DNA of 34,675 nucleotides from Erysipelotrichaceae bacterium (GTDB lineage Bacteria > Bacillota_I > Bacilli_A > Erysipelotrichales > Erysipelotrichaceae), in assembly GCA_030526485.1 (NCBI GenBank), contig JAUNCS010000008.1, positions 1-34,675 of the forward strand, given 5' to 3'. The position numbers and the translations under genes were made by a program. Under the pieces are notes generated by a model. The model saw only the letters and a program-made list of their open reading frames with translations, ran no database searches and was not told the DNA's origin. The number at the start of each line of letters is the position of its first letter. Position 1 is the first letter of the stretch. Shown piece by piece: positions 29,560-34,675 of the stretch.

Positions 29560-29577
29560 CAATAAATATATTGATAA

Positions 29578-29603
29578 ATTTATAGATATATTTATCTATA
29601 AAT
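29578..29603. repeat. Perfect 11-bp inverted repeat upstream of the Phd-like gene
   Basis: Arms ATTTATAGATA (29578-29588) and TATCTATAAAT (29593-29603) around TATT. No T run follows, so it is a poor terminator. It lies 15 bp upstream of the -35 box and may be an operator, possibly for the antitoxin-like protein next to it. Confidence 0.5.
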
Positions 29604-29618
29604 ATTAATTAAGATAAA

Positions 29619-29647
29619 TGGACATATTTATAGTGAAATGCTATAAT
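29619..29647 (+). promoter_or_regulatory. Promoter of the surface operon
   Basis: TGGACA (29619-29624), 17-bp spacer, perfect TATAAT (29642-29647), then six bases and ATG 29654. A start in the -35 region at 29618 is therefore impossible on this transcript, and the mRNA should be leaderless. Confidence 0.75.
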
Positions 29648-29653
29648 GTTTTC

Positions 29654-29869
29654 ATGAATAAAAAATCTAGTTTAGGACAGATGTTGGACTCACTAGTGCC
29701 TATCAGTGCACTTAACCAGGGAAAGGCTGCCAAGATTATTTCTAGTCTTGGTCCTGATGATGTTAAAATCATCGTCAAGAACAATGAACCAATGGCGGCT
29801 ATCATACCGATTTCCCGTTTTTCCAGAATGGTAGAAGCGGAAGAAAGTATGGAGAAAGAAAATGGCTAG
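29654..29869 (+). CDS. Phd/YefM antitoxin-like small protein
   Basis: 71 residues from ATG 29654 (MNKKSSLGQ). The pattern VPISALNQGKAAKIISSL, then VKIIVKNNEPMAAIIPISRFSRMVE, resembles the DNA-binding N-terminal domain of Phd/YefM antitoxins (an ISA start, a helix, then a hairpin with xKNNxPxAxIxP). It lacks a long toxin-binding tail, and no RelE, Doc or other known toxin is adjacent. A longer reading from ATG 29618 is rejected because the promoter lies inside it. It overlaps the next gene by eight bases. It may be an autoregulator of the surface operon; this is inference. Confidence 0.65.
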   Translation: MNKKSSLGQMLDSLVPISALNQGKAAKIISSLGPDDVKIIVKNNEPMAAIIPISRFSRMVEAEESMEKENG

Positions 29870-30788
29870 TAAGAAAAGGGATAGTTCTTTATTATCGCTG
29901 CTGGTCATTGTAGTACTGGGTGTACTTATAGGCCTTTTAATATTTTTTGGATTTAATCGTCCTAAAAAGCCAATCACTGATAAGCCAACTGTAACTGAGC
30001 CTGACAACAAAATAAAAGAGAGCGTAGAACTTGTTTCCTATAAGGTCTATGAGGACGATGGGAGTATGGGATTTAATTTCGCTTTGGCTGAACTTAAATT
30101 CTTTAATATTGATGGTGTAAACTATGACTTAAAGAATTTAAAGACCGATGAGGGAATTAAGCTTGATGACTACTATTTCTATGAAAAGAAAATGGCTGCT
30201 GCCGGTATTGATTATTCATTACTTGAAGCAGTTAATGAAGTAGTATCAGAAAACACTAGTTTAAACGCTGTGGTATTTATTCCTTATAGTGTTAAGGATG
30301 CTAAGCTTATGCTTACTGATACTGTAAATGCCCGAATTATTGAAATTGATACTTCTAAAAATAAAGAAGATCTGGGAGTTTTCAAATATGTTTCAACTCC
30401 TGATGAAATCAAGACTAAGGACTACGATTTAAGTGTTTCCAAGTCTTATGAATCAACTACTATGAAGATGGATGGTGAAAACTATACACCTTCAATGCTT
30501 AGCATCTATACCTTTGATTTAAATGTAAAAGCTATTTCAAATGGTATTAAAATCACTAAGGCTGAATTTGTACAGTCTGATACAAATGAAAAATACGAGG
30601 CCTTGGATGAAACTTATTATTCAACAAAGATCGGCAATATCATTAACCGTGACTTAAGAGTTGGTGATACCTATGCCTTATTCTTTGAAGTATTCTCTAA
30701 TCCTGAGGAAAAGAGTACATATGCTGGAAAGATTACTCTTTATTTCTCTGATGGATCTGCTGTAACGATTGACACTGTATTAAGATAA
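29862..30788 (+). CDS. Membrane-anchored extracellular protein of unknown function
   Basis: 308 residues. A basic start (MASKKRDSS) and one membrane helix (about residues 10-31) are followed by a proline and charged linker (RPKKPITDKP), then about 260 residues outside the cell. The outer part is rich in beta-type stretches without cysteines, and may be two sub-domains split near residue 185. I recognise no family. It begins inside the Phd-like gene (eight-base overlap), and the glucosaminidase gene follows one base after its stop, so it is part of one operon. Confidence 0.75.
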   Translation: MASKKRDSSLLSLLVIVVLGVLIGLLIFFGFNRPKKPITDKPTVTEPDNKIKESVELVSYKVYEDDGSMGFNFALAELKFFNIDGVNYDLKNLKTDEGIKLDDYYFYEKKMAAAGIDYSLLEAVNEVVSENTSLNAVVFIPYSVKDAKLMLTDTVNARIIEIDTSKNKEDLGVFKYVSTPDEIKTKDYDLSVSKSYESTTMKMDGENYTPSMLSIYTFDLNVKAISNGIKITKAEFVQSDTNEKYEALDETYYSTKIGNIINRDLRVGDTYALFFEVFSNPEEKSTYAGKITLYFSDGSAVTIDTVLR

Positions 30789-30789
30789 A

Positions 30790-33348
30790 ATGAAGAAATT
30801 ATTAAACATCTTATTAGCTGTATTGATATTAGTACCTCTTGTAGGTACTTTTGAGCGTACCGAAGTAAGTGCTCAGGAAACAGCCTGTGGTCTGGACTTT
30901 GAAGTAGCTTATATCAATGATGATGGAACTTTTGTAAGTGAAAGCTGCCATTCTGACTTTAATTCAGCTAAGTCCAAGATGAAGGAAATGGGTGGAGATA
31001 GAGTGGTAAGACACTATGCGTCGCTTTCTGATTCCAAGATTATTGCGATGAATTCAGGTGTAGCTTACTCATATCCTGGTAGAGATAATTCCAAGACCCT
31101 TAATATCTATCAGCATGTTTCCGATCATTCAAAATACTATAAGACAACTTATATTTCCAACCACTATGAAATGACTTATCACGATACTGAAAGATACTTT
31201 GTTTCTAATGGTAAGGGCTTAGGTATGATACAGGTCAGCATCAATGGCTTTGATGGTTATACTGACCTTGAATGCACAGATCTGGTTCCTTCTAAATTCT
31301 TAGATAGAAATCTAAATATCGTACTGGGTGGCAATGATTTATACAGTAATGAACAGCCTTTTGAAGTAAGAGTTCAAAGAAACTACTATGAGGCTGTTAG
31401 AAATGGTAACTATACTGATCTGGTTTATCACTCATTTAGAGCTTATCCAAGCGATGGTTTAAATCCAACTCATGATAAATATACGATTGGTCCAGCCAGC
31501 AAGGAAATGAAGACTGGTGTTAAATATTATTCAAATGATGGTCATACTTTCTATGACAACCCAAGTATGCAGGGTAAGGCGATTTCTTTTTATCCTTACT
31601 ACCAGTATCTGCCACTTCGTTCAAAGACTAATATTAGTGCTGAGACATTAAATAAGTTCATCAGCAGATATTCTGGTTCCATCATGATTGATAAGGGACA
31701 GAACTTTATTGATGCGCAAAATAACTATGGTATTAATGCCTTAACATTGTTTGCGATGGCATGCCATGAATCAGGCTATGGCCGTTCAGCTATTGCCAAG
31801 GCCAAGAACAATCTCTTTGGCTGGAATGCGGTTGACAGCTCTCCTGGGCAAAGTGCAACTACCTTCAACAGTGTTGAACACTGTATCAGTGAACATGCTG
31901 GTGTTAATCTTAGAGGCTTTATTGATATTACTGATGGAAGATTCTTCTCATCTTCATTGGGCAATAAGGGCTCAGGTTTAAATCTAAAGTATGCCTCTGA
32001 TCCATACTGGGGCATGGGTATTGCTTCTCTGGCTTATCAGATTGATAAGTTCCAGAACAACTACGATGGCAATTTAAGCGATTATGAGGTCTATGATCTG
32101 GCTTTAATCAATACCTTTGATGTAGAAGTTAAAGCTGAAGCTAACGCTGCTTCCAAGACTTTATATACAACCCAATATGGTCCATATTACCAAAAGGACT
32201 TTGTAGTAATTACGCTTGATGAGGGCAATGAATTTACCAAGATTCAGTCAACTAATGCGATTGATGAAAATGGCAATATCAAGACTCATCGTACACCAGT
32301 AACTGTAGGTGATGTTAATCCGATTTCAACTTATGACTATGAAAGAAGTGTCGCTTATATTCGAAGTGATTATCTGACTAAGTTGAATGTAGTTAAGGTT
32401 GAAGAAGAAAAGCCAGATATGCCAAGTGAATCAATGGCGATGGTAAATAATCTGAGCATTGATGAAAATACACTGCATATCGAAGGTTTAGGCCTGATTA
32501 AGGGTATGAACTTTACTAATCCTGCCAATATTGAACATTATGTTGTCTTAAAGAATATTGAGGATTATAAGGAAGTTTCAGCTTATCCATGTAAGAATGT
32601 GGAGGCTGAGGGCATTGACTTCAACGATGGCTATATCTATAAATATATTGGCTTTGAAGTAGATATTCCTTTAAGTTCTATTGAAGAAGGTTCTTATGTT
32701 TTTGATATCAGAACTATAAATAAGGATCAGAAATTTGAAAACCGTTTAATGAGCACAGATACTGCTTATACCAATATGAATGTTAAGACTGCTGATAAGA
32801 ATTATCATCTTGCCAGCAACCGTAACTACTCATACCGTATTGAATTAGATATCGAAAGCCTGCCAGAACTTATTGATTACACAGCAATCAATAAGCCTTC
32901 AAGCAAGGTTTCACTCTTCGCTTTTGATTCATCTAATTTAAGTATTAATGAAAATGGTATCTTCCAGCTATATGGTCAGGCAATGATTTATTATCTTGAC
33001 TATGCCAAGGAAGAAGATGTTAAGTACACTATGTACTTAATCGAAGATAAGGACAACTTCAAGGTTGTTCCATTAAGTACTAAGGCTTCTGATTTTGATT
33101 ATCAGAGTCTGCTTGAATCATCATTTAAAATGGACTACATCTGTTTTGAAGGAGAAACTGATTTAAGCGATTTAAGTGCTGGTACATATAAGATGCTGCT
33201 GAAGATTGAAAATGGCTCTTATATTGACTTTATAGAAATGACAAACAGATCTTTTGCTAGTACGCCTAGTAAGACAGTAGGTGATACTACTTACTCAATT
33301 CTTACTAACAGTATTAGAAACAGACTGCAATTAGAGGTGAAAAAGTAA
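30790..33348 (+). CDS. Secreted endo-beta-N-acetylglucosaminidase-type cell-wall hydrolase
   Basis: 852 residues with a signal peptide (core residues 5-18, likely cut after VSA at 28). The glucosaminidase domain spans about residues 290-430: LTLFAMACHESGYGRSAIAKAKNNLFGWNA, with probable catalytic E327, fits the GH73-like family that cuts peptidoglycan glycan strands. The N-terminal 250 residues are unassigned. The C-terminus holds two similar 136-residue units (555-690 and 717-852), probably beta domains for wall or partner binding. No LPXTG motif. It overlaps the PASTA gene by one base. Confidence 0.88.
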   Translation: MKKLLNILLAVLILVPLVGTFERTEVSAQETACGLDFEVAYINDDGTFVSESCHSDFNSAKSKMKEMGGDRVVRHYASLSDSKIIAMNSGVAYSYPGRDNSKTLNIYQHVSDHSKYYKTTYISNHYEMTYHDTERYFVSNGKGLGMIQVSINGFDGYTDLECTDLVPSKFLDRNLNIVLGGNDLYSNEQPFEVRVQRNYYEAVRNGNYTDLVYHSFRAYPSDGLNPTHDKYTIGPASKEMKTGVKYYSNDGHTFYDNPSMQGKAISFYPYYQYLPLRSKTNISAETLNKFISRYSGSIMIDKGQNFIDAQNNYGINALTLFAMACHESGYGRSAIAKAKNNLFGWNAVDSSPGQSATTFNSVEHCISEHAGVNLRGFIDITDGRFFSSSLGNKGSGLNLKYASDPYWGMGIASLAYQIDKFQNNYDGNLSDYEVYDLALINTFDVEVKAEANAASKTLYTTQYGPYYQKDFVVITLDEGNEFTKIQSTNAIDENGNIKTHRTPVTVGDVNPISTYDYERSVAYIRSDYLTKLNVVKVEEEKPDMPSESMAMVNNLSIDENTLHIEGLGLIKGMNFTNPANIEHYVVLKNIEDYKEVSAYPCKNVEAEGIDFNDGYIYKYIGFEVDIPLSSIEEGSYVFDIRTINKDQKFENRLMSTDTAYTNMNVKTADKNYHLASNRNYSYRIELDIESLPELIDYTAINKPSSKVSLFAFDSSNLSINENGIFQLYGQAMIYYLDYAKEEDVKYTMYLIEDKDNFKVVPLSTKASDFDYQSLLESSFKMDYICFEGETDLSDLSAGTYKMLLKIENGSYIDFIEMTNRSFASTPSKTVGDTTYSILTNSIRNRLQLEVKK

Positions 33349-34675
33349 TGAAAAAGTTTTTAAGTAATAAGCTGAATGTTGTACTTTCACTGATTCTGGT
33401 GGCTTTGGTTGCAACTATTACGATTGTGACTTTAAACCTTTTAGGCATTAATGCCAAGGTTGAAGCTATCGACTTCAGTAACTATACAAAAGAAGAAGTA
33501 GAACAGTGGATAGCTGAAAATAAGCTTGAAGAAGGTAAATACACTTATACCTTTGAATATGATGAAGTGATTGAAAAAGATCATGTCATCTACCAGTCTG
33601 TTAAGGTTGGTGAACCAATTGAAGAAAGCTTATACATCATCTATTCCAAGGGTGAAAATCCTGATGCGGAATACGCAATTATGGCAATTGGTGAAGATAC
33701 TACTAAGGATGAGCTTGATAAGTGGTTTTTAACTAATGGCTTTAGCGATGTTAAGTATCAGTACATTTTAAGCGATAAGGAAGTAAATACTGTTTTAAGT
33801 ATCAATAAAGCTTCTGCTAAGAAATATGATGAAGTAATCGTTACCTTATCAGCTAAGGATGATGAAAGCCTGTTATGTACAGTAGTTCCTGATTTATCTT
33901 TATATTCAAAAGAAGACTTATCTTTGTGGGCTGCTTCAAACAATATTGAAATCATTAATAACTATGAAGTAAATGCCAATATGGAAGAAGGCACATTCAT
34001 TAAGCAGAATCCAATTGCTGGTTCTATGGTTAAGCCTGGCAGCAAACTTACTATCACGCTTTCTTCTAAAGAGGAAAAGGCTGACAGCGATGAAATCAAT
34101 GTCCCTGATTCATATCTTGGTTATACAGAAATCAAGTTTGTAAAGGCTATTGAGGCTCTTGGTTTAAAGGCTCAAAAGTCTAGTTCAACTATGAAAAACA
34201 GCAAGTATCAGACCGGTACTGTTATCGCTTATGATTCAACAAGTGATGGCAAGAAGTTCAAGAAGGGTGATACTGTTAACTATACTTTAGTTGATAATGG
34301 TGACAAGGATCAGTTTGTAACTGTTTCTGATAGTTTTATCGGTAAGACTGAAGCGGAATTTGTTAAGGCTATGGAAGCTTTAGGTCTAAAGGCTGAAAAG
34401 CAGAAACAGACTTATAAGTCTAATAAGTATCAGACTGGTGTGGTTTATGCCTATGATTCAACAAGTGATGGTATCAACTTTAAGAAGGGTGATACTGTAA
34501 AGTACTACCTGGTTGATAATGGTGATGCCAACAGTGAATATGTAACAGTTCCTGATACTTATATCGGTTACACTGAGGAAAACTTTGTAAAAGCTATTGA
34601 AGCCTTAGGACTAAAACCGGTTAAACAGGATAAGACATATACATCACAAAAGTACAAGACTGGTGAAGTATATAT
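33348..34675 (+). CDS. Membrane-anchored PASTA-repeat protein (cut by window end)
   Basis: Open to the window edge (442 full codons seen). The start ATG overlaps the hydrolase stop (TAATG). A short basic start, one membrane helix (about residues 10-34), then only extracellular domains. A standard PASTA unit (VVPDLSLYSKEDL to KLTITLS, about 179-240) is seen, with PASTA-like units before it. Then come 74-75-residue units starting at residues 252, 326 and 401. There is no kinase domain and no penicillin-binding domain in the visible part. PASTA domains bind peptidoglycan fragments, so this is probably a wall-binding partner of the hydrolase. Confidence 0.85.
   Translation, partial: MKKFLSNKLNVVLSLILVALVATITIVTLNLLGINAKVEAIDFSNYTKEEVEQWIAENKLEEGKYTYTFEYDEVIEKDHVIYQSVKVGEPIEESLYIIYSKGENPDAEYAIMAIGEDTTKDELDKWFLTNGFSDVKYQYILSDKEVNTVLSINKASAKKYDEVIVTLSAKDDESLLCTVVPDLSLYSKEDLSLWAASNNIEIINNYEVNANMEEGTFIKQNPIAGSMVKPGSKLTITLSSKEEKADSDEINVPDSYLGYTEIKFVKAIEALGLKAQKSSSTMKNSKYQTGTVIAYDSTSDGKKFKKGDTVNYTLVDNGDKDQFVTVSDSFIGKTEAEFVKAMEALGLKAEKQKQTYKSNKYQTGVVYAYDSTSDGINFKKGDTVKYYLVDNGDANSEYVTVPDTYIGYTEENFVKAIEALGLKPVKQDKTYTSQKYKTGEVY
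34101..34675 (+). repeat. Tandem in-frame repeats in the PASTA gene
   Basis: Units start at 34101, 34323 and 34548 (222 and 225 bp). They share FVKAxEALGLK, the QTGxVxAYDSTSDG pattern and the FKKGDTVxYxLVDNGD block almost unchanged at protein level, and much at DNA level. The third unit is cut by the window end, so copy number is unknown. Confidence 0.85.

What the first reader, a model, noticed from the sequence alone, without database searches (positions are those of the whole stretch)
29560..34675. Uncharacterised surface operon: antitoxin-like regulator, unknown anchored protein, wall hydrolase, kinase-free PASTA protein
Four genes are joined by overlaps or a one-base gap behind one good promoter. 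The products form a plausible cell-wall module: a hydrolase with its own duplicated binding domains, a PASTA protein that could position or gate it, and an anchored unknown protein. The first gene is a Phd/YefM-like protein with no toxin, which would be an unusual regulator for such an operon. I know of no described system with this composition.
Basis: partly seen in the sequence, partly recalled or inferred. Interest (0 to 1): 0.75.

Follow-up and report, generated by a model that had tools for sequence, protein, structure and literature searches.

The report
Toxin-less antitoxin heads cell-wall operon
In one family of bacteria the DNA-binding half of a toxin-antitoxin antitoxin, together with its DNA target, appears to have been reused as the on/off switch of a small cell-wall operon, giving a testable case of a 'poison-antidote' part turned into an ordinary gene regulator.

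Summary
Four genes (Phd-like, anchored unknown, glucosaminidase, kinase-free PASTA) are tightly joined behind one promoter. The order recurs across an Erysipelotrichaceae genus (32 of 36 genomes carry both the Phd-like and the unknown gene; the other 4 lack both) and in three further genera, once away from its usual neighbours.

Gene 1 is a 71-residue Phd/YefM-type protein. It lacks the roughly 35-residue C-terminal tail found in 15 related antitoxins, which lie beside ParE/RelE-like or PIN-type toxin genes. Its promoter carries a 12-bp ladder of GATAAATTTATC-like sites reaching into the -35 box. The same motif and period lie upstream of many ParE-type relatives; the motif is nearly absent from 13 loci without the Phd gene. 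YefM operators also use 12-bp-spaced palindromes. The -10 box lies 6 nt from the ATG, so the mRNA is probably leaderless.

Best explanation: a domesticated antitoxin DNA-binding domain, with its inherited operator, autorepresses a wall-remodelling operon, in logic like MraZ at the division cluster. The hydrolase is LytB-like; a PASTA protein gating it is an analogy with StkP-LytB, untested. No binding, transcript or phenotype data exist.

The parts
29561..29632 (+). candidate operator: 12-bp ladder (AATAAATATATT, GATAAATTTATA, GATATATTTATC at 29561/29573/29585; in register with GACATATTTATA at 29621 inside the -35 box)
   Evidence: Sequence; best genome matches of the two-site pattern lie here; 12-bp periodicity over 30 loci
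29619..29647 (+). sigma-70-type promoter TGGACA-N17-TATAAT, -10 box 6 nt before the ATG (predicted leaderless start)
   Evidence: Sequence; -10 exactly 6 nt before the start in 22 of 30 orthologues against 4 of 299 starts of neighbouring genes
29654..29869 (+). Phd/YefM-type DNA-binding protein, 71 aa, no toxin, no C-terminal toxin-binding tail
29862..30788 (+). membrane-anchored extracellular protein, 308 aa: TM helix plus two beta-sandwich domains, the second MPT63/YcdA/YxkC-like
   Evidence: AlphaFold2 pLDDT 77; VIA-align Z 9.4-8.7; no Pfam family
30790..33348 (+). secreted LytB-like N-acetylglucosaminidase (PF01832, residues 304-419; Glu327 invariant) with two repeated C-terminal domains (about 546-695 and 696-852)
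33348..34675 (+). membrane-anchored kinase-free PASTA protein, truncated by the window end and a contig gap

Best explanation
A Phd/YefM antitoxin lost its toxin and its toxin-binding tail but kept its DNA-binding domain and its operator-promoter. It now acts as a dimeric autorepressor of a four-gene envelope operon: it binds a ladder of 12-bp palindromic sites that runs through the -35 box, blocks RNA polymerase, and so holds the dose of a LytB-like glucosaminidase, a kinase-free PASTA protein and an anchored Ig-fold protein at a set level. The first cistron is read from a leaderless mRNA; at least the second and fourth follow with their own ribosome sites. Shown by sequence: conservation of the module, truncation of the protein, the ladder, its link to the Phd gene in two contexts, the promoter spacing. 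Inferred: binding, repression, what relieves it, and that the three envelope proteins work together in daughter-cell separation.
For: Module conservation with joined genes; the Phd gene and the anchored-protein gene are present in the same 32 of 36 genus genomes; cassette away from the galE context in G081. GATAAA/TTTATC 59 sites against 6.2 +/- 2.5 in shuffles, GATAAA-N6-GATAAA 11 against 0.005; lag-12 self-match 0.545 against 0.380 +/- 0.009. Motif (GATAAA, TTTATC or GACAAA) in 30 of 30 Phd-bearing loci; GATAAA/TTTATC in 2 of 13 Phd-less loci, one copy each. Same motif and period upstream of ParE-type relatives (lag-12 0.401 against 0.327 +/- 0.012). YefM/Axe operators: palindromes 12 bp centre to centre, within the promoter (PMC7730913). 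All 33 operon-type proteins lack the tail that all 15 TA-type relatives have; operon type forms one clade, 95/94. Few motif pairs elsewhere in the genomes. LytB is the closest solved structure of the hydrolase, E 6.7e-28.
Against: No binding, transcript or expression data. The AlphaFold2 model of the Phd-like protein is poor (pLDDT 66) and its fold search was uninformative. In the own genome the ladder is less regular than in relatives. Six of the 15 TA-type relatives show no palindrome match better than chance. Upstream sequences are AT-rich and the genomes related, so shuffles overstate significance. One genus member (G008) lacks the PASTA gene.
Confidence: 0.75

Rival explanations
1. The Phd-like protein is a solitary antitoxin kept to neutralise toxins encoded elsewhere (anti-addiction), and merely sits in front of the wall operon.
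For: Solitary antitoxins are known; relatives pair with ParE-like and PIN-type toxins.
Against: The toxin-binding tail is missing in all 33 operon-type proteins; the protein stays in the same operon across genera; no other Phd homologue was found in the own genome (that search was for the antitoxin family only).
Confidence: 0.07
2. The 12-bp ladder is the site of another regulator or a DNA-structure element, and the Phd-like protein has another role.
For: The sites are AT-rich and overlap an inverted repeat that looks like a galE terminator in some relatives.
Against: The motif follows the Phd domain into unrelated TA loci and is nearly absent where phd is absent; its spacing equals that of YefM operators.
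Confidence: 0.12
3. Ordinary gene clustering: a degenerate, non-functional antitoxin relic upstream of a housekeeping autolysin operon.
For: Weak Pfam score of the single window protein.
Against: The core of the Phd-like protein is nearly invariant (54-80% identity across genera) while its operon neighbour drops to 20-46%: strong purifying selection.
Confidence: 0.04

Closest known systems
Phd/YefM antitoxins and their operators (yefM-yoeB, axe-txe)
   Same: Homologous N-terminal domain; palindromes within the promoter at 12-bp centre spacing (PMC7730913)
   Different: No toxin, no toxin-binding tail, more repeated sites, probable leaderless mRNA, stands ahead of envelope genes
MraZ of the division and cell wall (dcw) cluster
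   Same: Toxin-less antitoxin-like autorepressor as first gene of a wall/division operon, acting on direct repeats found at its own promoter (PMC8475190)
   Different: Different protein family (PF02381; the genome has its own MraZ) and different genes controlled
Pneumococcal LytB and the PASTA kinase StkP
   Same: LytB-like glucosaminidase and PASTA repeats; StkP directs LytB in daughter-cell separation (PMC12077195)
   Different: PASTA protein here has no kinase; no choline-binding repeats were seen in the hydrolase; anchored third partner
MPT63 / YcdA / YxkC beta-sandwich proteins
   Same: Second domain of the anchored protein has this fold (Z about 9); YxkC has been modelled with DacA (title of PDB 9a4z)
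   Different: Sequence identity 6-17%; tandem domains; no Pfam membership

Membership tests
Phd/YefM antitoxin family | homologous N-terminal DNA-binding domain | tested here: met
   10 of 12 members hit PF02604 (best E 1.6e-5); the operon-type profile finds TA-type Phd proteins at E about 1e-10 to 1e-18, which score at or near the Pfam cut-off
Phd/YefM antitoxin family | predicted Phd fold matches solved structures | tested here: inconclusive
   Model pLDDT 66 with plausible order of strands and helices; fold search gave no significant match
Phd/YefM antitoxin family | operator of 12-bp-spaced palindromes over the promoter | tested here: met
   reference spacing PMC7730913; binding itself not tested
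type II toxin-antitoxin module | adjacent toxin gene | tested here: not met
   Next gene is an anchored beta-sandwich protein
type II toxin-antitoxin module | C-terminal toxin-binding segment of the antitoxin | tested here: not met
   Absent in all 33 operon-type proteins, present in 15 TA-type ones
GH73 LytB-like glucosaminidase | catalytic domain with conserved Glu | tested here: met
   PF01832 E 3.7e-16; LytB 7pj3 E 6.7e-28; Glu327 invariant in 19
GH73 LytB-like glucosaminidase | hydrolytic activity | not testable with these tools
   Needs protein
PASTA Ser/Thr kinase | PASTA domains | tested here: met
   PF03793 E 9.6e-26, five stretches
PASTA Ser/Thr kinase | kinase domain | tested here: not met
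   No kinase in orf4; the true PASTA kinase is at C36
MraZ | MraZ domain | tested here: not met
   orf1 has no PF02381 hit
leaderless mRNA | transcription start at the start codon | tested here: inconclusive
   Promoter spacing predicts it; no 5' end mapping
MPT63/DUF4352-like domain | fold and family signature | tested here: inconclusive
   Fold Z about 9 for residues 178-308; no sequence family

The most novel reading that the evidence does not exclude
A toxin-antitoxin regulatory unit (antitoxin DNA-binding domain plus its operator-promoter) was captured whole as the control cassette of a LytB-like/PASTA cell-separation operon, with a leaderless repressor message; the hydrolase is positioned by a kinase-free PASTA protein and an anchored Ig-fold protein.
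Probability: 0.5. Interest if true: 0.75.

Novelty: new variant of a known kind. Interest (0 to 1): 0.62.

Why it matters
It is a clear, conserved case in which an antitoxin seems to have become a plain regulator, with both the loss (toxin-binding tail) and the retained part (DNA-binding domain and its operator) visible, and with toxin-bearing relatives in the same bacterial family for comparison. It makes an evolutionary route testable (MraZ at the division cluster, this protein at a wall-hydrolase operon), and it points to a kinase-free PASTA protein as a likely partner of a LytB-like hydrolase.

Tried and rejected
Chance sites: the other own-genome palindrome I looked at (C33:2331-2354) lies inside a coding sequence. 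The inverted repeat between galE and phd in some relatives was first taken as operator; its arms vary in sequence between genomes while the Phd core does not, and it often ends in a T-run, so it reads better as a galE terminator overlapping the promoter; it has no strong G+C stem in the window itself. PASTA protein as a stand-in for a missing kinase: rejected, the kinase is elsewhere. Fold search with the Phd model: uninformative. Profile of the anchored protein against sequences of solved structures: nothing. PADLOC: only PASTA-driven hits to PD-T4-6, not read as defence. Literature on YxkC-DacA: none held. The MraZ original paper is not held. The first spacing script took the wrong -10 hexamer in some loci, the window's own among them; counts used are.

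Full report
What is there. The window is the first 34,675 bases of a 59.6-kb contig of a 1.95-Mb Erysipelotrichaceae genome; relatives found by protein search are named Solobacterium sp., Erysipelotrichaceae and Firmicutes in their records. Downstream of galE lie four joined genes: Phd-like (29654-29869), an anchored protein (29862-30788), a glucosaminidase (30790-33348) and a kinase-free PASTA protein (33348 onward). The window stops at a 100-N gap inside the PASTA gene; its frame continues after the gap to 35899, and a sugar-transfer-type ATP-grasp gene (PF14397) follows 2 bases later.

Conservation. In the same genus 32 of 36 genomes have the anchored-protein gene, and the same 32 have the operon-type Phd gene; the other four lack both. 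Order and tight joins are kept wherever the contig allows, except that one genome (G008) lacks the PASTA gene. The cassette occurs in three more genera (g45, g47, g91), and in G081 it stands without galE beside it, so it persists as a unit. In more distant family members the anchored protein and the hydrolase stay together without Phd, and a kinase-free PASTA gene often lies a few kilobases away, mostly beside a gene that looks like tex. So the three envelope genes look like the older association and the Phd-like regulator the addition (inference).

The regulator. The 71-aa protein is a Phd/YefM-type DNA-binding domain. A profile of the operon type finds longer Phd proteins in the family and order. 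I fetched 15 such loci (L106-L120): in 14 a ParE/RelE-like or PIN-type toxin gene adjoins, and in L106 a ParE-like frame is cut by the contig end. All 15 carry a C-terminal extension of about 35 residues that all 33 operon-type proteins lack. The operon type is one clade with support 95/94, on few columns. Its core is nearly invariant, 54-80% identity between genera, while the anchored protein falls to 20-46%, which argues for a kept function.

The operator. Upstream of the Phd gene in 30 loci, GATAAA/TTTATC occurs 59 times against 6.2 +/- 2.5 in dinucleotide shuffles, and GATAAA pairs at exactly 12 bp 11 times against 0.005. The ladder sits near -93, -81, -69, -57, -45 and -33 from the ATG, the last inside the -35 box. 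The self-match peaks at lag 12 (0.545 against 0.380 +/- 0.009). The motif is nearly absent from the 13 loci without Phd. In the own genome the best pattern matches lie at this promoter; 16 of 17 relatives have matches, few in number and mostly at this operon, and the reversed control gives none in 14 of the 17. Upstream of the TA-type relatives the same palindrome is found (mean best match 9.67 of 12 over all 15 loci against 8.23 +/- 0.18; examples L108, L109, L114, L120), and the ParE-type ones show the same lag-12 peak (0.401 against 0.327 +/- 0.012); the three PIN-type loci do not show the palindrome. The only element that I found shared by the two contexts is the Phd domain. YefM and Axe operators consist of palindromes 12 bp apart centre to centre within the promoter (PMC7730913). 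The simplest reading is that the Phd-like protein binds the ladder and that domain and operator descend together from a toxin-antitoxin unit.

Promoter and start. The -10 box lies exactly 6 nt before the ATG in 22 of 30 Phd genes against 4 of 299 neighbouring starts, and a ribosome site is seen in 1 of 30, so a leaderless message is likely. Most TA-type relatives have ordinary-looking ribosome sites. In the window the promoter is TGGACA-N17-TATAAT, 29619-29647.

The envelope proteins. The hydrolase's catalytic domain is closest, among solved structures, to pneumococcal LytB, with the catalytic-type Glu327 invariant and two repeated C-terminal domains. The anchored protein is modelled as a TM helix plus two beta-sandwich domains; the second resembles YcdA, YxkC, MPT63 and YjhA (Z 8.7-9.4) at low sequence identity. 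The PASTA protein has no kinase; the genome has a separate PASTA kinase beside a phosphatase-like gene. StkP directs LytB in pneumococcal cell separation (PMC12077195), so a PASTA-hydrolase pairing has precedent; gating is not shown here.

How it works, most likely. Phd-like dimers bind successive 12-bp sites and occlude the -35 box, repressing their own operon. With no toxin there is no conditional cooperativity; this would be a plain feedback loop fixing the dose of wall-cutting enzymes, or a switch if the protein is degraded under stress (inference). MraZ offers a close parallel in logic: toxin-less, antitoxin-like, first in the division operon, acting on direct repeats at its own promoter (PMC8475190); it is a different family.

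Limits. All evidence is from sequence and predicted structure. The shuffles do not correct for relatedness, and the regions are AT-rich. The AlphaFold2 model of the small protein is poor. The literature searches cover open-licence papers only, so absence there is weak evidence of novelty.

Noticed in passing
G000:C37:34676-34775 (just past window end): 100-N assembly gap inside near-identical PASTA repeats; frame resumes after it and ends at 35899.
   Followed up: yes
G000:C37:35902-36900; also L032, L038, L049, L054: Sugar-transfer-associated ATP-grasp gene (PF14397) behind the PASTA gene in some genomes; in G008 (L038) it follows the hydrolase and the PASTA gene is missing.
   Followed up: partly
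L096 (G000:C43:45729-47564): A second kinase-free PASTA protein among ABC-transporter genes; PASTA domains also in a PBP-like protein (C57) and another large membrane protein (C51).
   Followed up: partly
L038, L040, L042, L043, L047, L051, L052 upstream of phd: Inverted repeat with arms that differ between genomes but stay complementary, followed by a T-run, overlapping the phd promoter: probable galE terminator.
   Followed up: partly
L099:4803-5237 (G000:C57): Own-genome MraZ (PF02381) ahead of a division-type cluster, a natural comparison for the Phd-like regulator.
   Followed up: partly
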